From assembly GCA_944385125.1 (NCBI GenBank), contig CALWVZ010000021.1, positions 1 to 32,091 on the forward strand: 32,091 bases of DNA, read 5' to 3'. How positions within the stretch are numbered: the stretch's first letter is position 1; every line of letters starts with the position of its first letter. A program made the translations under genes and the position numbers. The notes beneath the pieces are model-generated. The model was not told the DNA's origin and made no database searches. It saw nothing but the letters and a program-made list of their open reading frames with translations. The stretch is from an uncultured Oscillospiraceae bacterium. Lineage in GTDB: Bacteria; Bacillota; Clostridia; Oscillospirales; Oscillospiraceae. Positions 22,281-31,087 of this stretch are shown here, piece after piece.

Positions 22281-22315
22281 GGGACGCAGAGCATTTCTGC
22301 GTCCCTTGACTTTTT
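22271..22315. terminator. Strong bidirectional terminator
   Basis: A perfect 20-bp stem (22271-22290 with 22296-22315), 5-nt loop, A5 and T5 ends. It directly abuts the stop codon of the ImmA-like gene and terminates the repressor operon before thrC. Confidence 0.94.
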
Positions 22316-22665
22316 CAAAGATACAGGCTTTCCAGATCCAAGCGCTGCTGGGCGCAGAGATTTTTCAACCAATGCTCCAGAGCCGCCTCGGAGCGAAAAC
22401 AGGGTATATAACCCTCCGGGGGATGGAGCACCACGTTTATATGCTCCCCCTCAGCCTGGCGCTCCATTAGGCTTATAGGCATGTCCAGGTAGAAATGCTC
22501 CCGGCGGATGTGAGACAGCTCGTGCTCCAGTACTTCCCGGCGCCTTTGGGGCGGCAGGAGGGAATTGATATATATATCGAAGCTGCCGTCCTCATTTAGG
22601 ACGCTGACGCCCTCGACCCGCCGGGGCAGCTCCAGCAGACGCATATAGTAATCAGTCATTCCCAC
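22315..22665 (-). CDS. ImmA/IrrE-like zinc metallopeptidase
   Basis: A 116-residue protein with zinc-peptidase motif HELSH (48-52) and following RREHFY, typical of ImmA/IrrE metallopeptidases that cleave the cognate phage or element repressor. It overlaps the upstream HTH gene (GTG at 22665, or ATG at 22659), so the two form a repressor-antirepressor pair. The arrangement is standard for ICEs and Firmicute prophages. Confidence 0.85.
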   Translation of the reverse strand: MGMTDYYMRLLELPRRVEGVSVLNEDGSFDIYINSLLPPQRRREVLEHELSHIRREHFYLDMPISLMERQAEGEHINVVLHPPEGYIPCFRSEAALEHWLKNLCAQQRLDLESLYL

Positions 22666-23008
22666 GCAGCGCCTTTATTATTTTTACCGCCTGACGCACA
22701 TCCTCCGGGGCGGCATCCTTGGCCAGAGAAAAGAGCATGCGCATATCCTCCCGCTCCCGCAGGGCTGCAAGCAGCTGGGTCAGCTCGTCGCCCACAGAAG
22801 AGGCGGGTTCCTCCGCCTCGCCCATCAGATAGGCGGGAGTGGTATCCAAAATGGCTGCCACCCGCTGAAGCTGCTCCAAACTGGGCTGGGACTTGCGCTG
22901 CTTCCAGTCCTGGCAGAGAGTGGCGCTGCGGCCCAGAGACTGGGCGATAAACTTCTTGGTTATGCCCTTGGACCGGCGCAGCTGCTCAAACCTGTCATAA
23001 TCGAACAA
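22652..23008 (-). CDS. XRE/Cro-C1-type phage repressor
   Basis: About 118 residues. The N-terminal helix-turn-helix spans roughly 5-60 (GITKKFIAQSLGRSATLCQDWKQRKSQ in part). I prefer a TTG start at 23008 (MFDYDRFEQL...) because AGGTGAGG is properly spaced there; GTG at 23017 and TTG at 23032 are alternatives. Its promoter region carries repeated operator-like sequences. It overlaps the ImmA-like gene. It likely maintains lysogeny by repressing itself and the rightward phage promoter. Confidence 0.85.
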   Translation of the reverse strand: MFDYDRFEQLRRSKGITKKFIAQSLGRSATLCQDWKQRKSQPSLEQLQRVAAILDTTPAYLMGEAEEPASSVGDELTQLLAALREREDMRMLFSLAKDAAPEDVRQAVKIIKALRGND

Positions 23009-23030
23009 AAGCCTCACCTCATTTATGTGC

Positions 23031-23061
23031 AATATAACAAATCTTAAAAAAGCAAGAGCAA
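23031..23061 (-). promoter_or_regulatory. Leftward promoter of the repressor operon
   Basis: On the minus strand, TTGCTC (23061-23056) and TATATT (23036-23031), a long 19-bp spacing. Operator repeat 1 lies within the spacer. Weakly supported as a promoter. Confidence 0.45.
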
Positions 23062-23364: not shown

Positions 23365-23602
23365 AAAAATATGCTGGACTATGGCGGATGTGAAATGCCC
23401 CTTTTACAAAAAGGACAGCCGCCAGGAGAGGAGCATCAGCTGCGAGGGCTTTGACCGGGACAGCACCGTGGAGACCCGCTTTAAAAATCTGGAGCTGAGA
23501 GAGAAGCATATGGGCCGCTACTGCGTGGCCAGATTTAAGCTCTGCCCCATTTACAAAAGCACCTACGATACAAAATACAGAGAGGACGGAGAGGAGGCAT
23601 GA
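23351..23602 (+). CDS. Cys-rich small phage protein
   Basis: An 83-residue protein with Cys at positions arranged in VKCPFY, ISCEGF, YCVARF and LCPIY. The four-Cys pattern suggests a zinc-binding fold. Similar small proteins sit directly before the small terminase in clostridial phages. The function is unknown. The ATG is preceded by GGAGTAGAGG and its end overlaps the TerS gene (ATGA). Confidence 0.75.
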   Translation: MASYKKICWTMADVKCPFYKKDSRQERSISCEGFDRDSTVETRFKNLELREKHMGRYCVARFKLCPIYKSTYDTKYREDGEEA

Positions 23603-23991
23603 GCTGGGAGTCGGGCAGAGACTGGGAAAAGATCCGGCAGGATTATCTCAACTCCTCCATCAGCCTCAGAGCCCTGGCGGAGAGCTCCGGCGTAAGTCTC
23701 AGCACACTTGAAAAACGCAGCAGCAGAGAGGGCTGGCAGCAGATGAGAAAGCAGAGACAGCTGGAGCTGGGCTCGGCAAGGCTGGAACAGGTGGCGGACA
23801 AGCTGCTGGGCAGCATATCCCGAGCCCTGGACCAGGGAGAGAACCTGGAAGCCAGAGACTACAAAGCCCTCAGCTCCGCCGTAAAAGAGTTGGGAGAGAT
23901 AAAGGAGCAGCTCTGCTCCGCCGGCCTCAAAGGCGGCAGGGAGCCGCTGGAGGTGCGCCTGGCCCCGGAGCTGGAGGAACTGAGCGGATGA
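23599..23991 (+). CDS. Phage terminase small subunit-like protein
   Basis: A 130-residue protein. The N-terminus holds a helix-turn-helix (ISLRALAESSGVSLSTLEKRS, ~18-38, DNA-recognition) and the rest is helical with a coiled-coil-like oligomerisation part (~60-115). Size, fold and position directly before TerL fit the packaging subunit that recognises phage DNA. Starts at an ATG overlapping the upstream stop by 4 bp. Confidence 0.75.
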   Translation: MSWESGRDWEKIRQDYLNSSISLRALAESSGVSLSTLEKRSSREGWQQMRKQRQLELGSARLEQVADKLLGSISRALDQGENLEARDYKALSSAVKELGEIKEQLCSAGLKGGREPLEVRLAPELEELSG

Positions 23992-24004: not shown

Positions 24005-25441
24005 ATGCCCCAGCTGCTGATACCCCCTCCCAGCGAGAAGCAGAGGCTGTTCATGGCCGACAGGCACAAATATGTGGGCTACGGCGGAGCAAGAGGCGGG
24101 GGCAAGAGCTGGGCGGTGCGCATCAAGGCGGCGCTGCTGTGCATCAAGTACCCGGGGATAAAGGTGATGATAATACGCAAAACCTATCGGGAACTGAGGG
24201 AAAACCACATCGTCCCCCTATGTCAGCTGCTTTGCTGCATGGGTGATAAGGAGGAAAGGATAGCTCAATACTCCGACAGCCGTAAAGAGATAGATTTTCC
24301 CAACGGCAGCAGGATACTCTTCCGTTACTGCGACAGCGACCGGGACAGCCTGCGCTTTCAGGGTACGGAGGTGGATGTGCTCTTTGTGGACGAGGCCACC
24401 CAGCAGAGCGAGGAGAAGATGGACGCATTGAAGGCCTGCGTTCGGGGGGTGAACGACTTCCCCAAGCGTATCTACTACACCTGCAACCCGGGAGGCGAGG
24501 GCCACGGCTGGGTGAAGAGGCTCTTTATAGACAGAAGATACAAGGACAACGAGAGGGCGGAGGAGCACAGCTTCATACAGGCTCTGGTGACGGACAACAA
24601 GGCCCTGATGGAGGCGGACCCGGAGTACATAAGGCAGCTGGAGGCTCTGCCACCCAAGCTGCGGGAGGCCTGGCTCCACGGCAACTGGGACATCTTTGAG
24701 GGTCAATTCTTTGAGGACTTCCGTACGGAGCCGGACATGAAGGCGGCAAAAGAGGCCGGCTGCATCCTTACGGCGGAAGAACTTAAACAGCAGCACCGCT
24801 GGGTCCACGTTATAGAGCCCTTTGACATCTCCGCCGGAAGCCGGAGGGGCTGGAAACTGATGCGCTCCTATGACTTCGGCTACGGAAAACCCTTCTCCTG
24901 CGCCTGGTGGGCCATAGACTACGACGGGGCGATCTACCGTATACTGGAGCTCTACGGCTGCACGGAAAACCCCAACGAGGGCGTGCGCTGGACCCCGGAC
25001 CAGCAGTTTCGGGAGATAGCCAGAATAGAACGGGAGCACCCATGGCTGAGAGGCAGGTACATAGAAGGGGTGGCCGACCCGGCTATTTGGGACGCCAGCC
25101 GGGGCGAGAGCATTGCCGACACGGCGGCAAAATACGGCCTGGTTTTCATCCCCGGGGACAACCAGCGCATACCCGGCTGGATGCAGTGCCACTACCGGCT
25201 CCAGTTCGACAGGGAGGGGCGCAGCAGAATGTATGTTTTTTCAAGCTGCAAGGCCTTCATCCGCACCATACCTCTTATGATGTACCACAAGCACAGGCCG
25301 GAGGACCTGGATACGGATCTGGAGGACCATGTGGCCGACGAGTGGAGATACCTGTGCATGTCCTGCCCAGTGGCGCCCCTGCGGCCCGTGGTAGAAAAGA
25401 GCTATATGAACGACCCCCTGGACCAGTTTAAAAAATACTGA
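24005..25441 (+). CDS. Phage terminase large subunit
   Basis: A 478-residue packaging motor. Walker A is GGARGGGKS (27-35) and Walker B is VLFVDEAT (~124-131). The coupling motif includes YYTCNPGGEGHGW. The RNase-H-like nuclease domain follows with RSYDFGYGKPF, YIEGVADPAIWD and a late acidic region. The motor moves DNA into the prohead and cuts it. GAGGAGA lies upstream. This is a full-length, intact protein, which suggests selection on packaging. Confidence 0.95.
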   Translation: MPQLLIPPPSEKQRLFMADRHKYVGYGGARGGGKSWAVRIKAALLCIKYPGIKVMIIRKTYRELRENHIVPLCQLLCCMGDKEERIAQYSDSRKEIDFPNGSRILFRYCDSDRDSLRFQGTEVDVLFVDEATQQSEEKMDALKACVRGVNDFPKRIYYTCNPGGEGHGWVKRLFIDRRYKDNERAEEHSFIQALVTDNKALMEADPEYIRQLEALPPKLREAWLHGNWDIFEGQFFEDFRTEPDMKAAKEAGCILTAEELKQQHRWVHVIEPFDISAGSRRGWKLMRSYDFGYGKPFSCAWWAIDYDGAIYRILELYGCTENPNEGVRWTPDQQFREIARIEREHPWLRGRYIEGVADPAIWDASRGESIADTAAKYGLVFIPGDNQRIPGWMQCHYRLQFDREGRSRMYVFSSCKAFIRTIPLMMYHKHRPEDLDTDLEDHVADEWRYLCMSCPVAPLRPVVEKSYMNDPLDQFKKY

Positions 25442-25466: not shown

Positions 25467-27338
25467 ATGGAAAATGAAATTAAGCTGCCGGTGGACGGCC
25501 AGCGGCTGAGGGAGTTCACCGGGATATTGCAGAAATACAAAACGGGCAAACACAGCGTTGAAAGGCGTACCATTGCAGCGGAAAATTGGTGGAAACTGAG
25601 AAACCAGGCGGAGGAGAGAAAAACCAGCGAAGGTCTCAGAGGCTTTCAGGCCGTGTCCGGCTGGCTGCACAATGTGATCGTCTCCAAACACGCCGACGCT
25701 ATGGAGGCATATCCTGAGCCCAGCATCCTGCCCCGGGAGGCGGGTGACCGGCAGGAGGCCGCAGTGCTCAGCAAGATAATCCCGGTCATCCTGGAGCAAA
25801 ACGAATTTGAAAAGACCTACTCCGACGCCATGTGGCAAAAGCTGAAGACCGGCACCGGCGTGTACAAGGTCTACTGGGACACCGAGAAACTCAACGGCTT
25901 GGGAGACATAGCCATAGAGCGGGTGGACCTGCTGAACCTCTTCTGGGAGCCGGGCACGGAGGATATTCAAAACAGCCCCTACTTCTTCCACACGCGGCTG
26001 GAAAACAACCGGGAGCTGGAGGAGACCTATCCCCAGCTGAAGGGGCAGCTCAAAGGCACAGGCTTCCTGGCTTCCCGCTTCCTCTACGATGATGCGGTCT
26101 CCACCGAGGGCAAGTCCACGGTGGTGGACGTGTACTACAAGAGAAAAGAGCAGGGCAGAACTGTGCTCCACTACTGTAAGTATGTGGGGGACAAGGTCCT
26201 GTACTCCACGGAAAACATGAAGCTGCTCAGGCTGGGCTCTCCTGCCGGGGAGCTGCCGGAGGAAATTCCCCCCGGCGGCGGGGGGCTGTATGAACATGGA
26301 CTATATCCCTTCGTCTTTGACAGCCTCTTCCCCGTAGAGGGCAGCCCCTGCGGATACGGCTTTATCGACCTGTGCCAGAACAGCCAGACCCAGATAGACA
26401 TGATGCAGACCGCCTTTATAAAAAACACTATGGTGGGCTCGGTGCCCCGCTACTTCCAGAGAGTGGACGGGGCCATAAACGAGGAGGAATTTTTGGACCT
26501 CAACAACCCTATCATCCATGTCAGCGGCAATCTGGGCCAGGACAGCCTGCGCACCGTGGACTACCGGCCCCTCAGCGGAAACTACATTGACATGCGCACC
26601 AGCGTCATAAACGAGCTGCGGGAGACCTCCGGCAACACCGAGACCTCCGTGGGACTGGTGAGCTCCGGCGTAACGGCTGCCTCCGCCATCGCAGCCCTTC
26701 AGGAAGCCAGCGGCAAGGGCAGCCGGGACGCTACCCGTTCCAGCTACCGGGCCTACGGGAAAATCATTTCCCTTTGCATCGAACTGATACGCCAGTTTTA
26801 TGAGCTGCCGCGCCAGTTCCGCATCACCGGCAACCTGGGGGTGGAGCGCTTTATCCACTACAGCAACCAGGGACTGCTGCCCCAGCAGCAGAGCTACCAG
26901 GGCATAGAGCTGGGGATGCGCCTGCCGGTATTCGACATCAAGGTGATCCCCCAGAAGAGCAGCTCTTACACAAGGCTGAGCCAGAACGAACTGGCATTGC
27001 AGTTTTACCAGCTGGGCTTCTTTTCCCCAAATCAGGCCGACCAGGCCCTGGCCTGCATGAGCATGATGGAATTTGAGGGCAAGGACGAGCTGATGCAAAG
27101 AATATGCGCCAACGGCACCATACAGCGAAAACTCTCCATGTTCCAGCAATACGCCTTGGCTATGACGGAAAAATACGAGCCGGAGAAAGCCGGGGAGCTT
27201 ATGGGCAGTATCACCGGGGACGCAGGGATAGTACAGCGCAGCAGAGCAAAGCTCAAGGAGAACGGCACCGGGGAAAACAGCAGAGTGGCCCAGGCCCGGC
27301 GCAGGGCCCAGAGCGTATCCCAGCCGGGAGGCCGCTGA
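25467..27338 (+). CDS. Phage portal protein
   Basis: A 623-residue protein with the position and features of a large portal: mid-region RVDLLNLFWEPGTEDIQNSPYF, SQTQIDMMQTAFIKNT and GNTETSVGLVSSGVTAASAIAALQEASGKGSR, then a helical C-terminal region. Length exceeds that of HK97-type portals (~400-500) and approaches P22-type portals (~700). It forms the dodecameric ring for DNA entry. AAAGGAG precedes the ATG. The stop is one base from the Prp start. Confidence 0.88.
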   Translation: MENEIKLPVDGQRLREFTGILQKYKTGKHSVERRTIAAENWWKLRNQAEERKTSEGLRGFQAVSGWLHNVIVSKHADAMEAYPEPSILPREAGDRQEAAVLSKIIPVILEQNEFEKTYSDAMWQKLKTGTGVYKVYWDTEKLNGLGDIAIERVDLLNLFWEPGTEDIQNSPYFFHTRLENNRELEETYPQLKGQLKGTGFLASRFLYDDAVSTEGKSTVVDVYYKRKEQGRTVLHYCKYVGDKVLYSTENMKLLRLGSPAGELPEEIPPGGGGLYEHGLYPFVFDSLFPVEGSPCGYGFIDLCQNSQTQIDMMQTAFIKNTMVGSVPRYFQRVDGAINEEEFLDLNNPIIHVSGNLGQDSLRTVDYRPLSGNYIDMRTSVINELRETSGNTETSVGLVSSGVTAASAIAALQEASGKGSRDATRSSYRAYGKIISLCIELIRQFYELPRQFRITGNLGVERFIHYSNQGLLPQQQSYQGIELGMRLPVFDIKVIPQKSSSYTRLSQNELALQFYQLGFFSPNQADQALACMSMMEFEGKDELMQRICANGTIQRKLSMFQQYALAMTEKYEPEKAGELMGSITGDAGIVQRSRAKLKENGTGENSRVAQARRRAQSVSQPGGR

Positions 27339-27339
27339 G

Positions 27340-27657
27340 ATGACCAGAGTGAGCTATGACCGGGCGGGACTGAGAATGAAAATACAGGGCCACGCAAACT
27401 CCGGGGAATACGGCAGGGACATTGTCTGTGCTGCCGAGTCGATACTGATGCTGACTCTGGAAAGACAGCTTCAGGAGCTGGAGGGCCTGGAGAGGCTCAG
27501 CGTGCTGAAAGGCCCGGGCAGGGCGGACATCAGCTGCTGCCCCAGCCGGGAAAAGACGCTTCGGTGCAGAGACATCTTCGAGACGGTATTCCTGGGATAT
27601 CAGCTACTGGAGAGCATGTACCCGGAATACGTGGAGACTGAGATACTTACGCAGTAG
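27340..27657 (+). CDS. Phage-encoded Prp-type cysteine protease
   Basis: A 105-residue protein with the Prp catalytic signature GHANSGEYGRDIVCAAES: presumed catalytic His18 and Cys30. Cellular Prp in Firmicutes removes the N-terminal extension of ribosomal protein L27 after the NLQFF residues; staphylococcal Prp also processes phage capsid proteins with similar N-termini. This copy is within the phage head module, between portal and scaffold, and the capsid encoded 1.7 kb downstream contains NLQFFA. Processing of the capsid is inferred. Confidence 0.88.
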   Translation: MTRVSYDRAGLRMKIQGHANSGEYGRDIVCAAESILMLTLERQLQELEGLERLSVLKGPGRADISCCPSREKTLRCRDIFETVFLGYQLLESMYPEYVETEILTQ

Positions 27658-27671
27658 GAGAGGTGGAGACT

Positions 27672-28529
27672 ATGGCACAGTTGGAAAGTAATGAAAAGGA
27701 TAAAAGTACCCAGAGCGCAGAACAAAAAACAGATAAACCCCAGCTCAGCGTCGGCCAGGGGAGCTCAGTCCAGAACAGCTCCCAGGATTACAAAAACACT
27801 ATGGAGGCGCTTAAGGAGAGCGAATACAGTCTGCCGGAATACACCAGCAGCTATGACGAACAGATAAGCCAGATATACAACAAGATAGTGAGCCGGGAGC
27901 CCTTCAGCTACGACCCCATGTCCGACAGCCTGTACGGCCACTACAGGGAGCAGTACACCCAGTTGGGCAGGCAGGCCATGAGAGACACCATGGGTCAGGC
28001 TGCCGCCCTTACCGGGGGCTATGGCAGCAGCTATGCCCAGCAGGTGGGGCAGCAGGAGTACGACAGCTATTTGCAGAAATTGGGGGAGGTACTGCCGGAG
28101 CTCTACTCCGCCGCCTATCAGAGGTACAAGGACCGGGGAGAGAGCCTGGAAGAGGAGTACCAGAGACTGCTGACTATGGAGCAGGCGGAGTACGGCAGGT
28201 ACAGAGACCAGATCGAGGATGTGAAATACCAGCAGGGTATGGCTGCGGATGCGGCTGCCGCAGAGCAGGAGCGCAAGGACAAGAACTATGAGCGGCTGGT
28301 GGAGCTCATCACCAAGACAGGCTATGCCCCCAGCGCGGAGGAACTGGAAGACAGCGGCATGACCCAGGCCCAGGCAGATGCCTACAGGAACCGATATAGC
28401 GGCGGAGGCGGAGGAGGCGACAGCAGCCATGGGCCCAGCAGCACCTATCTGGCCTACTATTATGGAAATAAGTCCAACTACCTGGGCGGAGGCAAGGCAC
28501 AGACCAAGATAAACGCCAACAACAGATGA
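27672..28529 (+). CDS. Gln/Gly-rich phage head-module protein
   Basis: A 285-residue protein of unknown function. The first ~40 residues are polar and disordered; a helical middle contains MRDTMGQAAALTGGYGSSYAQQVGQQEY and a Tyr/Glu/Arg-rich coiled region; near residue 240 comes a run of Gly (RYSGGGGGGDSS) and a basic tail. I recognise the GGYGSSYAQ-type segment from clostridial prophage head modules but know no role; a virion-internal or ejection protein is possible. The ATG at 27672 follows GGAGAGG; a GTG at 27663 is the alternative. Confidence 0.7.
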   Translation: MAQLESNEKDKSTQSAEQKTDKPQLSVGQGSSVQNSSQDYKNTMEALKESEYSLPEYTSSYDEQISQIYNKIVSREPFSYDPMSDSLYGHYREQYTQLGRQAMRDTMGQAAALTGGYGSSYAQQVGQQEYDSYLQKLGEVLPELYSAAYQRYKDRGESLEEEYQRLLTMEQAEYGRYRDQIEDVKYQQGMAADAAAAEQERKDKNYERLVELITKTGYAPSAEELEDSGMTQAQADAYRNRYSGGGGGGDSSHGPSSTYLAYYYGNKSNYLGGGKAQTKINANNR

Positions 28530-28583
28530 CGGAGCCCTTAATATGCAGCAATGCACTATATATAAGGAGAATGGAGGCATCCT

Positions 28584-29339
28584 ATGCAGAATGAAAAAAC
28601 GCAGCCCCTGCAGGAGAGCGATAAGCTTGAATCCGGGGAACAGACGGGCGCAGCAGCTGCCGACGCCGGGCAGAACAAACTAAAGCCGGAAGGCAAAAAA
28701 AGCTGGGAAGAGATACTGGCGGACCCGGAATACCGAAGCGAGTATGACCGTCAGGTCCAGAGCATCGTTAAAAAAAGACTCAGGGACCGGCAGGGAAACG
28801 AGGAAAGGCTGAAGAAACTGGACGCAGTTGTCAATGAGATAGGCCGGAGCTTCGGCATGGATGTGCAGCAGGGACAGGAGGCAAGCCTGGATAAGCTGGC
28901 GGAAAAGGTACGCCGGTCAATGCAGGAGCAGCTGAAAGGAGAATACGGCAGGGCATGGCGGGCCAAGGCTCAGCTGGACAGTCTCAAGCAGCAGGCCGAG
29001 ACCATGAAAAAGAACTTCCCGGACTTTGACCTGGCCAGAGAGCTGGAGAACAGAGAGTTCCTGAAGCTCACCGCACCCCACACCGGACTGAGTCTGGAGG
29101 AGGCTTACTATGCCCTGCACCACAGGGAACTGGCTGAAAACCTGAGCAAGGCCGCTACCCTGTCCGCTGCCAAGTCAGTCAGCTCCGGGGCTGCAAGACC
29201 CAGAGAACTGAAAGGCGGCCAGGCTGCCCTGAACAGCTCCGGGGACCCAAGGCAGATGTCCCGGCAGGAAAGGGAAGAGCTGAAGAAACGCATCTACCAG
29301 GCCAGCGCCCAGGGGAAAAAATTGCCCTACGGCTCATAA
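28584..29339 (+). CDS. Putative phage scaffold protein
   Basis: A 251-residue, strongly charged and helical protein with little hydrophobic core: an acidic N-terminus, a long coiled-coil region (about 50-150, including SIVKKRLRDRQGNEERLKKL), and a C-terminal SRQEREELKKRIYQ. Composition, size and position immediately before the major capsid gene are those of scaffold or DUF4355/GP20-like proteins that guide prohead assembly. It has no NLQFFA-like sequence, unlike many proteins of this class. Confidence 0.75.
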   Translation: MQNEKTQPLQESDKLESGEQTGAAAADAGQNKLKPEGKKSWEEILADPEYRSEYDRQVQSIVKKRLRDRQGNEERLKKLDAVVNEIGRSFGMDVQQGQEASLDKLAEKVRRSMQEQLKGEYGRAWRAKAQLDSLKQQAETMKKNFPDFDLARELENREFLKLTAPHTGLSLEEAYYALHHRELAENLSKAATLSAAKSVSSGAARPRELKGGQAALNSSGDPRQMSRQEREELKKRIYQASAQGKKLPYGS

Positions 29340-29358
29340 GAAATGAAAGGATGAGACA

Positions 29359-30453
29359 ATGGAGACTATCACTAGAGAAAATCTGCAATTCTTTGCCGAT
29401 GCGGGGACCGTGGTCAACAGCACGGCGGGATATGTGAACGCCGGCACCGGCGCAGTCACCGAGTTTGACGCAGGCAAGACCCTGGCCCCTGAGCTGAAGG
29501 CCTTCTACGACACGGAGCTGCTGGAAAATGCCCGCACCGAACTGTTCTATGCTCAGTTCGCCAAGCGCCAGGCCCTGCCGGCAAACCACCACGGCAGCGT
29601 GGAATGGCGCAAGTGGAACACCTTTGAACGGGCTGCAAAGCTCACTGAAGGCGTTATACCCACCGGGCAGAAGTTCGGCGTCACCACTGTGACCGGCAGC
29701 GTGGACCAGTACGGCACCTACACATCCATCACCGACAAGCTGGAGCTGAGAGCCTATGACGACGTTATACTGGGCGCTACCGAGGAGATGGGTGCCTCCG
29801 CCGCTGAGACTCAGGAGAAGCTCATCAGGGATGCTCTGCTGGTGGGCACCAATGTGCTTTACTGCGACAATATCAACAAGAGCACAGGGGCGGTAATATC
29901 CGCACCCACCAGCTGCGCCGCAATGGGGGCCAGCGACACCAACGGCTGGAGCCTGCTCACTCCCGCCATGATAAACAAAGCCGTCACCATTATGAAGAAG
30001 AACAGGGCGCCCCGTATAAACGGCCGCTACTATGCCGTTGTCCACCCCTCGGTGGCCCACGACCTGAGAGAGTGCGAGGGCTGGATAGAGGCCCACAAGT
30101 ATGCCTCCCCAGAGGAGCTCTTTAACGGAGAGATAGGCGAGCTCCACGGAGTGCGCTTTATCGAAAATGTATTTGCTCCCGTTCTGGGCGACGGCGACGA
30201 ATACGAGAACAAGGACGGAGGCCGCAGCTATGCCACCTATTTCTTCGGCAAGGACAGCTTCGGCATCATTGACCCTGAGGGCGGAGCCCTGGAGATGATA
30301 ATCCACGACAAGGGAGAAATAGGCGGACCGCTGAATCAGTTCAGCACCATAGGCTATAAGTTCGAGACCAACGGCGCCACTATACTCTATCCCGAGAGGC
30401 TGCTGAGAGTAATGAGCACCTCCAGCTTCAGCGATGTGGATGAGCTCAACTGA
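29359..30453 (+). CDS. Major capsid protein, N4-gp56 family
   Basis: A 364-residue protein with features of the N4-gp56-type major capsid family, an HK97-fold protein: GKTLAPELKAFYDTELLENARTELFYAQFA, KLTEGVIPTGQKF and INGRYYAVVHPSVAHDLRE (shown in part). The N-terminus is METITRENLQFFADAG, and residues 8-13 (NLQFFA) are identical to the Prp cleavage core of Firmicute L27. Cleavage between F12 and A13 by the nearby phage Prp is predicted. Ribosome binding site AAAGGATGAG is upstream. Confidence 0.9.
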   Translation: METITRENLQFFADAGTVVNSTAGYVNAGTGAVTEFDAGKTLAPELKAFYDTELLENARTELFYAQFAKRQALPANHHGSVEWRKWNTFERAAKLTEGVIPTGQKFGVTTVTGSVDQYGTYTSITDKLELRAYDDVILGATEEMGASAAETQEKLIRDALLVGTNVLYCDNINKSTGAVISAPTSCAAMGASDTNGWSLLTPAMINKAVTIMKKNRAPRINGRYYAVVHPSVAHDLRECEGWIEAHKYASPEELFNGEIGELHGVRFIENVFAPVLGDGDEYENKDGGRSYATYFFGKDSFGIIDPEGGALEMIIHDKGEIGGPLNQFSTIGYKFETNGATILYPERLLRVMSTSSFSDVDELN

Positions 30454-30465
30454 GGAGGAGAGAGC

Positions 30466-30669
30466 ATGGAAGAGAGAATTGAAATCTACATACCCAGGGT
30501 TTCCGACAGGGAGGACCCCAACCTTTTCGTGGCGGTGAACGGCGTAAACTATCTGCTGCCCAGAGGCAAGAAGTCCATGGTGCCCAAGTTCGTGGCGGAG
30601 GAGATAGAGCGCAGCAACCGGGCGGCGGATATCTTCTACGAAAACGTCAGCGGCATGAAAAACAACTGA
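30466..30669 (+). CDS. Small phage head-module protein
   Basis: A 67-residue protein (MEERIEIYIPRVSDREDPNL...). Similar short proteins with an NGVNYLLPRGK motif follow the major capsid in clostridial phages; the function is unknown. GGAGGAGAG lies before its ATG. Confidence 0.7.
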   Translation: MEERIEIYIPRVSDREDPNLFVAVNGVNYLLPRGKKSMVPKFVAEEIERSNRAADIFYENVSGMKNN

Positions 30670-30721: not shown

Positions 30722-31087
30722 ATGAAAGCCATTGAGGCTATACGCCGGGTTGATATCCTGGAGCCTAACCAGTATGCCGTGGACCAGAAGCTGCGCTGGC
30801 TGTCTCTTCTGGACGGGCAGATATACGAGGAGCTCATCAGCGCCTATTCACCCGAAACGGAAAAACCGGGAGAATACCTTAACGGAGATGAGGAACTGCT
30901 GGCGCCTATGCCCTATGCAGAGAGTATTTACTGCCCCTATCTCCAGGCTATGATAGCTGCGGAGAACTTTGAAAGCGCCAAGTATAACCAGCAGGTAGCC
31001 ATCTATAACGGGGCCTTTCAGCAGTACCGGGACTGGATATGCCGCAGAGGCAGACACAGGAACCGGGGCAGGGGATTCATTTTTTGA
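30722..31087 (+). CDS. Possible head-tail connector protein
   Basis: A 121-residue helical protein. Residues 1-60 and 70-105 (PYLQAMIAAENFESAKYNQ and FQQYRDWICRR) look like those of small helical adaptor proteins following the capsid gene in many phages. No decisive motif is visible; the role is inferred from order, size and helical character. GGGGGAGAG precedes its ATG. Confidence 0.55.
   Translation: MKAIEAIRRVDILEPNQYAVDQKLRWLSLLDGQIYEELISAYSPETEKPGEYLNGDEELLAPMPYAESIYCPYLQAMIAAENFESAKYNQQVAIYNGAFQQYRDWICRRGRHRNRGRGFIF

What the first reader, a model, noticed from the sequence alone, without database searches (positions are those of the whole stretch)
27340..29397. Phage-encoded Prp protease paired with a capsid carrying the NLQFFA cleavage core
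The head module encodes a Prp homologue (GHA...GEYGRDIVC, catalytic H18/C30) and, 1.7 kb later, a major capsid protein whose residues 8-13 read NLQFFA (29380-29397). Firmicute Prp cleaves L27 after NLQFF. Known cases use the host Prp on phage capsids; here the phage carries its own enzyme and an N4-gp56-type substrate. Together this predicts proteolytic maturation of the capsid (loss of 12 residues), and perhaps processing of host L27 during infection. The scaffold-like protein lacks the motif.
Basis: partly seen in the sequence, partly recalled or inferred. Interest (0 to 1): 0.8.

Follow-up and report, generated by a model that had tools for sequence, protein, structure and literature searches.

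The report
Phage-encoded Prp that trims its capsid
A phage living in a gut bacterium that seems to have lost the ribosome-trimming protease Prp carries its own copy of that protease, apparently to trim its own shell protein, and in related phages the protease and the cut site tend to come and go together.

Summary
In detail: a Prp-family cysteine protease gene (27340-27657, His18/Cys30) follows the portal gene, and the major capsid protein begins METITRENLQFF|ADAG (motif 29380-29397). Comparison supports an enzyme-substrate pair. Of 139 non-redundant capsid N-termini, 120 hold [LIF]Q.[FLY][AGS] (shuffles 1.3%; terminase 0 of 99). The host has short L27 and no chromosomal Prp was found; all 62 Prp genes found in its genus lie in phage head modules. 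Processing of host L27 is therefore not supported. Among 50 MAGs with capsid relatives, the two with no Prp anywhere carry leaderless capsids; the two whose phage cassette lacks Prp but keeps the leader have a host Prp and a near-identical L27 leader. Phage and ribosomal Prps part on one branch (support 89). The same arrangement, with leaders on scaffold and capsid, occurs in isolated phages with another head cluster (phiFL3A, Lj965, phiS13 and others), so the gene was already in databases; eight searches found no paper stating the pairing. Exceptions remain (motif without a known Prp source; Prp with a degenerate leader). Cleavage itself is inferred and its purpose unknown; on the 80alpha capsid it is dispensable.

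The parts
23599..23991 (+). terminase small subunit (likely)
   Evidence: phrog_1206 6.3e-10
24005..25441 (+). terminase large subunit
   Evidence: PF04466 4.4e-16; phrog_979 2.8e-46
25467..27338 (+). portal protein, P22-like
   Evidence: PF16510 8e-24
27340..27657 (+). Prp-family cysteine protease, 105 aa; catalytic His18 (27391-27393) and Cys30 (27427-27429)
   Evidence: PF04327 2.3e-15; AlphaFold2 pLDDT 90.7, TM 0.82 to S. aureus Prp 7kld; dyad invariant in 29 of 29
27663..28529 (+). uncharacterised 288-aa protein that travels with the module
   Evidence: no Pfam or PHROG match at E 0.001; homologues in many relatives
28584..29339 (+). scaffold-like protein, no Prp leader
   Evidence: phrog_13908 5.6e-24, no known function; N-terminus read; scaffold role inferred from position and homologues
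29359..30453 (+). major capsid protein, N4-gp56 family
   Evidence: TIGR04387 2.4e-55; phrog_1357 5.1e-63
29359..29394 (+). capsid leader, residues 1-12, predicted to be removed
   Evidence: METITRENLQFF|A; core conserved in relatives; cleavage inferred
29380..29397 (+). NLQFFA cleavage core; predicted cut between 29394 and 29395
   Evidence: sequence
30466..30669 (+). small head-module protein of unknown function
   Evidence: phrog_15239 1.1e-10
30722..31087 (+). head-module protein of unknown function
   Evidence: phrog_12105 6e-23

Best explanation
The prophage supplies its own Prp, a small His/Cys protease, from the gene directly after the portal. During particle assembly it cuts the newly made major capsid protein between Phe12 and Ala13, removing METITRENLQFF. 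Shown here: gene, predicted fold, catalytic residues, leader, their conservation, and several cases of linked presence or loss of leader and protease. Inferred: that this enzyme cuts this bond, when, and why. The phage needs its own enzyme because its host keeps none: L27 in this genus has no leader and no chromosomal Prp was found. Phages of Prp-bearing hosts either carry their own Prp or, in one small group, lack it and wear a leader almost identical to host L27's, presumably using the host enzyme as 80alpha does. As for purpose, I favour a role of the leader in early folding or assembly, with Prp removing it afterwards; the 80alpha data show that cutting the capsid protein itself can be dispensable.
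For: Family and dyad; predicted fold matches substrate-bound S. aureus Prp 7kld, TM 0.82. Leader in 120 of 139 nr90 N-termini, in capsids down to about 37% identity to the window's. Genus: 58 of 102 genomes have Prp, 62 places, 62 of 62 in phage head modules; 21 of 21 genus L27 N-termini read lack a leader. 50 MAGs: long L27 in 19, Prp beside rpmA in 19 of 19; short L27 in 26, Prp beside rpmA in 0 of 26; 5 without L27 found. The only 2 of the 26 with no Prp (G169, G193) are the 2 with leaderless capsids. The only 2 of the 19 without a second Prp (G195, G198) have phage cassettes without Prp, with leader LKLNLQHFA against host L27 LRLNLQLFA and LKLNLQLFA. A third Prp-less cassette (L185) has a capsid starting MPETNTTTVIN, near the predicted mature end. 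Phage Prps and ribosomal Prps lie on two sides of one branch (91 v 32 rows, SH-aLRT 89). Isolates with another head cluster: of 7 opened, the scaffold has the motif in 7 and the capsid in 6.
Against: No cleavage assay or mass spectrum. Ten closed cassettes with Prp lack the motif pattern (8 at nr97), though most keep degenerate forms such as NLRAFEG. Eight closed cassettes have motif without Prp on the stretch (4 at nr97): L362 and L365 have a host Prp and L332's Prp is on another contig, but L217 and L408-L411 are unresolved: no Prp in the whole records of L217 (25 kb), L410 (42 kb) and L408 (6 kb), hosts unknown; L409 and L411 were checked only on the fetched stretch. Five of 9 virus records searched whole had no Prp (L119, L133, L145, L155, L185); the first four are fragments without a portal on the stretch. 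The tree-based test of linked loss had 5 independent pairs: about 1.9 agreeing, 0 opposed, 3.1 undecided, not significant (in which L332 was still counted as Prp-less). At nr80 the Prp-motif association is p 0.09. The two pairs of MAG exceptions are each near relatives (85% and 91% MCP identity), so perhaps two events, not four. Cutting the 80alpha capsid is dispensable (PMC5744158).
Confidence: 0.85

Rival explanations
1. The LQxFA leader is conserved as an assembly or folding signal shared by scaffold and capsid, and the phage Prp mainly serves another substrate (for example scaffold or a tail protein); capsid cutting is incidental.
For: In 80alpha the scaffold N-terminus is essential but need not be cut, and capsid cutting is dispensable (PMC5744158). 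80 of 131 relatives' scaffolds carry the leader; the phiFL3A major tail protein starts MKKLDLQLLA.
Against: In the window and its near relatives L061 and L064 the scaffold leader is absent while Prp and the capsid leader remain; no other window ORF of 40 aa or more has the motif; leader and Prp are both missing in L185, L325 and L360.
Confidence: 0.1
2. The phage Prp processes host L27 or another host protein such as FlhB during infection.
For: Prp cuts L27 in S. aureus, and FlhB has been proposed as a substrate (PMC9405229, passages).
Against: Host L27 starts MAHKKG without a leader; no FlhB was found in the genome, which is 76% complete.
Confidence: 0.02
3. The prophage Prp is an inactive or passenger relic and the leader a neutral inheritance.
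For: The window ends inside the prophage, so its intactness is unknown, and no activity has been shown.
Against: H18 and C30 invariant in 29 of 29 sequences, down to 21% identity to the window Prp; core leader letters 95-98% conserved among leader-bearing rows.
Confidence: 0.03

Closest known systems
Host Prp (MEROPS C108) acting on Staphylococcus phage 80alpha capsid and scaffold
   Same: Same protease family and an LQxF|A leader on a capsid protein (PMC9405229 and PMC5744158, abstract and passages read)
   Different: There the host supplies Prp and the phage has none; here the phage supplies it, and the host has short L27 and no Prp was found on its chromosome
Prp-like genes of phages phiFL3A, Lj965, phiS13, PLgT-1, BL3, DO134P1 and TMW 1.1365 P3
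   Same: Prp gene after or near the portal; LQxFA leader on the scaffold in 7 of 7 and on the capsid in 6 of 7 (DO134P1 capsid reads LQVFT; its head proteins are annotated hypothetical and their roles inferred by me)
   Different: Another head cluster (in phiFL3A annotated with an SPP1-type portal and a Mu-F minor head protein); Lactobacillus johnsonii, host of Lj965, has a long L27 by Table 2 of PMC9405229
Clan CR capsid protease of phage Cp-1
   Same: Phage protease of clan CR that removes an N-terminal stretch of a capsid protein (as stated in PMC9405229; that it is phage-encoded is recalled)
   Different: Other enzyme of the clan; about 40 residues removed; not compared by sequence here
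Ribosomal Prp beside rpmA
   Same: Fold and dyad
   Different: Other side of one branch, other gene neighbourhood, scores far below NCBIfam ribosomal Prp cut-offs (47.8 v 171 for the best)

Membership tests
Prp cysteine protease family (PF04327 / MEROPS C108) | profile match over the curated cut-off | tested here: met
   57 v 27 bits
Prp cysteine protease family (PF04327 / MEROPS C108) | catalytic His and Cys | tested here: met
   H18, C30; 29 of 29
Prp cysteine protease family (PF04327 / MEROPS C108) | bba-bba-b fold of solved Prps | tested here: met
   model order E E H E E H E; 7kld_B TM 0.82, rmsd 2.3; a predicted structure
Prp cysteine protease family (PF04327 / MEROPS C108) | cleaves after Phe in LQxF|A | not testable with these tools
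   motif present in the capsid; no assay
Ribosomal-processing Prp (L27 maturation) | gene beside rpmA | tested here: not met
   lies between portal and scaffold; rpmA is on another contig with no prp beside it
Ribosomal-processing Prp (L27 maturation) | L27 with N-terminal leader in the same genome | tested here: not met
   MAHKKG start
Ribosomal-processing Prp (L27 maturation) | NCBIfam equivalog cut-off | tested here: not met
   best 47.8 v 171 bits
N4-gp56 major capsid family (TIGR04387) | score over cut-off | tested here: met
   188 v 60 bits
Phage capsid maturation protease (functional class) | encoded in the head module with its substrate | tested here: met
Phage capsid maturation protease (functional class) | processed capsid in mature virions | not testable with these tools
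   needs mass spectrometry

The most novel reading that the evidence does not exclude
Prp-plus-leader is, by origin or at present, a phage capsid-processing system carried by more than one head cluster, and the ribosomal Prp/L27 pair of Firmicutes is one cellular branch of it. Phages keep a private enzyme with its own leader preference, so that they stay independent of whether a host has kept or lost L27 processing.
Probability: 0.3. Interest if true: 0.75.

Novelty: new variant of a known kind. Interest (0 to 1): 0.6.

Why it matters
It gives a clean setting for a question left open by 80alpha: why phages put the Prp leader on capsid and scaffold. Here the enzyme is in the phage, no other Prp was found in the host, and nature supplies both kinds of loss (no Prp and no leader; no phage Prp but a host-like leader). 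It also bears on Prp as a proposed antibacterial target: phage-borne copies exist in bacteria with short L27, so finding a prp gene does not mean that L27 processing exists. And it offers a rule for annotating 'peptidase' genes beside phage portals.

Tried and rejected
Host L27 and FlhB as targets were tested and not supported. The window's own Prp as query found nothing in INPHARED and one locus in IMG/VR; divergent Prps were needed as queries. A scaffold leader was looked for: common in relatives, absent in the window. The tree test of linked loss was underpowered. Leader-Prp co-divergence is weak: partial rank correlation 0.17 given MCP distance, 0 of 499 permutations as high, 81 rows; permuting rows does not remove shared descent. 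The capsid model was poor (pLDDT 57.9; residues 1-20 under 50, as are 40-149) and was not used further. L332 was first counted as Prp-less; its Prp very likely lies on another contig, in a layout with Prp downstream of the capsid gene. Paper searches; listings only, except passages of PMC9405229, PMC5744158, PMC8008677, PMC6893505 and PMC8569155. Wall et al. 2015 was not held and may already mention phage copies.

Full report
What is there. The window is the whole of contig C21 of a 2.0 Mb, 76% complete genome. Up to about 22.2 kb the genes that I named are bacterial (rsmG, an alanine symporter, threonine synthase; not every ORF there was searched). Then follow an ImmA-like gene and a repressor (22315-23032), terminase small subunit, terminase large subunit, portal, Prp, a 288-aa protein, a scaffold-like protein and the capsid protein. 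I take it for a prophage joined to its host's chromosome and cut by the contig end. Prp and the NLQFFA leader are at the stated coordinates.

The protease. PF04327, 57 bits. H18 and C30 are invariant in 29 of 29 aligned sequences, two of them ribosomal. The AlphaFold2 model (pLDDT 90.7) has 13 matches in the PDB at E 0.001 or less: S. aureus Prp (7kld, 7jvs, 4peo), T. maritima 1s12, and streptococcal 2idl, 2g0i and 2g0j, titled as of unknown function; that the last are Prps is recalled. Substrate-bound 7kld_B has TM 0.82. The protein scores far below NCBIfam's ribosomal Prp cut-offs. In a tree of 123 Prps, 91 phage rows and 32 rows from loci beside rpmA are parted by one branch, SH-aLRT 89, with few columns and most forks unresolved.

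The leader. Capsid relatives came from IMG/VR, GTDB genomes, INPHARED and the genus. Each scan kept only its best 80 loci. One retrieval pattern contained the motif, but all 80 of its loci also hold at least one other pattern; the other scans' patterns did not contain it. Of 346 loci, 342 had a capsid match, 337 a readable N-terminus and 262 a portal end upstream on the same stretch; several contigs appear more than once before clustering. Closed cassettes: Prp and motif 238, Prp only 10, motif only 8, neither 6; at nr97 133, 8, 4, 4 (Fisher p 0.0015, kinship ignored), at nr80 52, 5, 3, 2 (p 0.09). The strict motif is in 120 of 139 nr90 N-termini, shuffles 1.3%, terminase 0 of 99, portal 4 of 111, Prp 1 of 107, scaffold 80 of 131. 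The stretch examined runs up to 75 residues before a conserved anchor and may extend past the true start.

The host. L27 of this genome starts MAHKKG and no prp gene lies beside rpmA. In the genus 58 of 102 genomes have Prp, in 62 places. I looked at all 62: 19 including the window, 43, one of which needed. All lie beside phage head genes. L27 was read in 21 of the 33 genus genomes with a hit; none has the leader. At order level the 6 genomes read with long L27 have Prp and the 3 with short L27 have none.

Linked loss. 19 have long L27, and all 19 have Prp beside rpmA; 26 have short L27 and none does; in 5 no L27 was found. Short-L27 set: 24 have a Prp elsewhere and 2 (G169, G193) have none, and exactly these 2 have capsids without leader (MPVTDITAN, MAVTDITVN). 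Of the 24, Prp lies on the fetched capsid stretch in 18, on the same contig by its length in 3 more (L311, L330, L334), on another contig in 2 (L301 and L332, both at contig ends), and for L354 I did not settle it. G030, the same genome as G193, is 92% complete; the completeness of G169 is not known to me. Long-L27 set: 17 have a second Prp (13 on the fetched stretch, 4 only elsewhere in the genome). The 2 without (G195, G198) have phage cassettes in which the scaffold follows the portal with no Prp, and the capsid leader LKLNLQHFA, equal to host L27 at 7 and 8 of 9 positions, against 3 to 6 in the other 17. The phages of G169 and G193 are 85% alike in capsid and those of G195 and G198 91%, so each pair may be one event. 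A third leaderless capsid without Prp is L185 (12 kb record). L217 and L408-L411 keep the motif without a Prp found; their hosts are unknown. Five of 9 virus records searched whole had no Prp; besides L185 these are fragments without a portal on the stretch. L334 and L336 sit in MAGs titled Bacteroidales and Bacteroidaceae whose L27 differs from the rest; binning error is likely, and both are among the 26.

Generality. Divergent Prp queries hit 11, 26 and 31 INPHARED records, overlapping. I opened 7, mostly complete phages with annotated head genes. The scaffold carries the motif in 7 of 7 and the capsid in 6 of 7; DO134P1 has LQVFT, and there I inferred which genes are scaffold and capsid. 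Their Prp is annotated as peptidase (with a DUF464 note in phiFL3A) or hypothetical, and is unannotated in DO134P1. Lj965 is telling: its leaders end LDLQRF|A, while L27 of Lactobacillus johnsonii ends EALKLF|A (PMC9405229 Table 2), so phage and host sites differ. The cultured phages with distant capsids of the window's family that I opened, API480, Page and BS162P1, have neither Prp nor leader on the stretch.

Function. In 80alpha the host Prp cuts capsid and scaffold; uncleavable or pre-cut capsid protein is viable, and the scaffold N-terminus is essential but need not be cut (PMC5744158, abstract and passages). That, among short-L27 hosts, the leader was seen only with a Prp in the genome suggests that an uncut leader is harmful or useless here; that step is inference. 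Leader and Prp diverge together only weakly.

Novelty. Phage Prp genes are in PHROGs (phrog_4478) and in annotated phages, so the gene is not new. In eight paper searches I found no statement that phages carry Prp with matching capsid leaders; the library holds open papers only, and Wall et al. 2015 was not available. The genus is probably that of 'Candidatus Limivicinus': L300 carries that name and its contig has the same length, 16,232, as G003's C161; this is an inference.

Noticed in passing
22315-23032: An ImmA-like protein and a repressor stand directly before the terminase genes, next to the host threonine synthase gene; I saw no integrase among the genes searched on this side, so this prophage end looks unusual or compact.
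   Followed up: partly
L103 130-2616; L376 7959-10445; L541 22-1525: A layout with Prp about 1 kb downstream of the capsid gene instead of after the portal.
   Followed up: partly
L563 9905-10267 (phiFL3A): The major tail protein starts MKKLDLQLLA, a possible third Prp substrate besides scaffold and capsid.
   Followed up: no
L130, capsid N-terminus: The leader reads DIQFFT where L133, otherwise near identical there, has DIQFFA.
   Followed up: no
L410 4802-6978: Scaffold (MNLQLFA) and capsid (INLQLFA) both carry the leader, but no Prp was found in the 42 kb record; host unknown, perhaps a host-Prp user.
   Followed up: partly
L334, L336: Phage contigs of this kind binned in MAGs titled Bacteroidales and Bacteroidaceae; their L27 differs from the other hosts'. 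Probable binning errors.
   Followed up: partly
L369 894-1892: Another capsid without leader (MSNIINTTGGYVN); the stretch upstream is too short to tell whether Prp is present.
   Followed up: no
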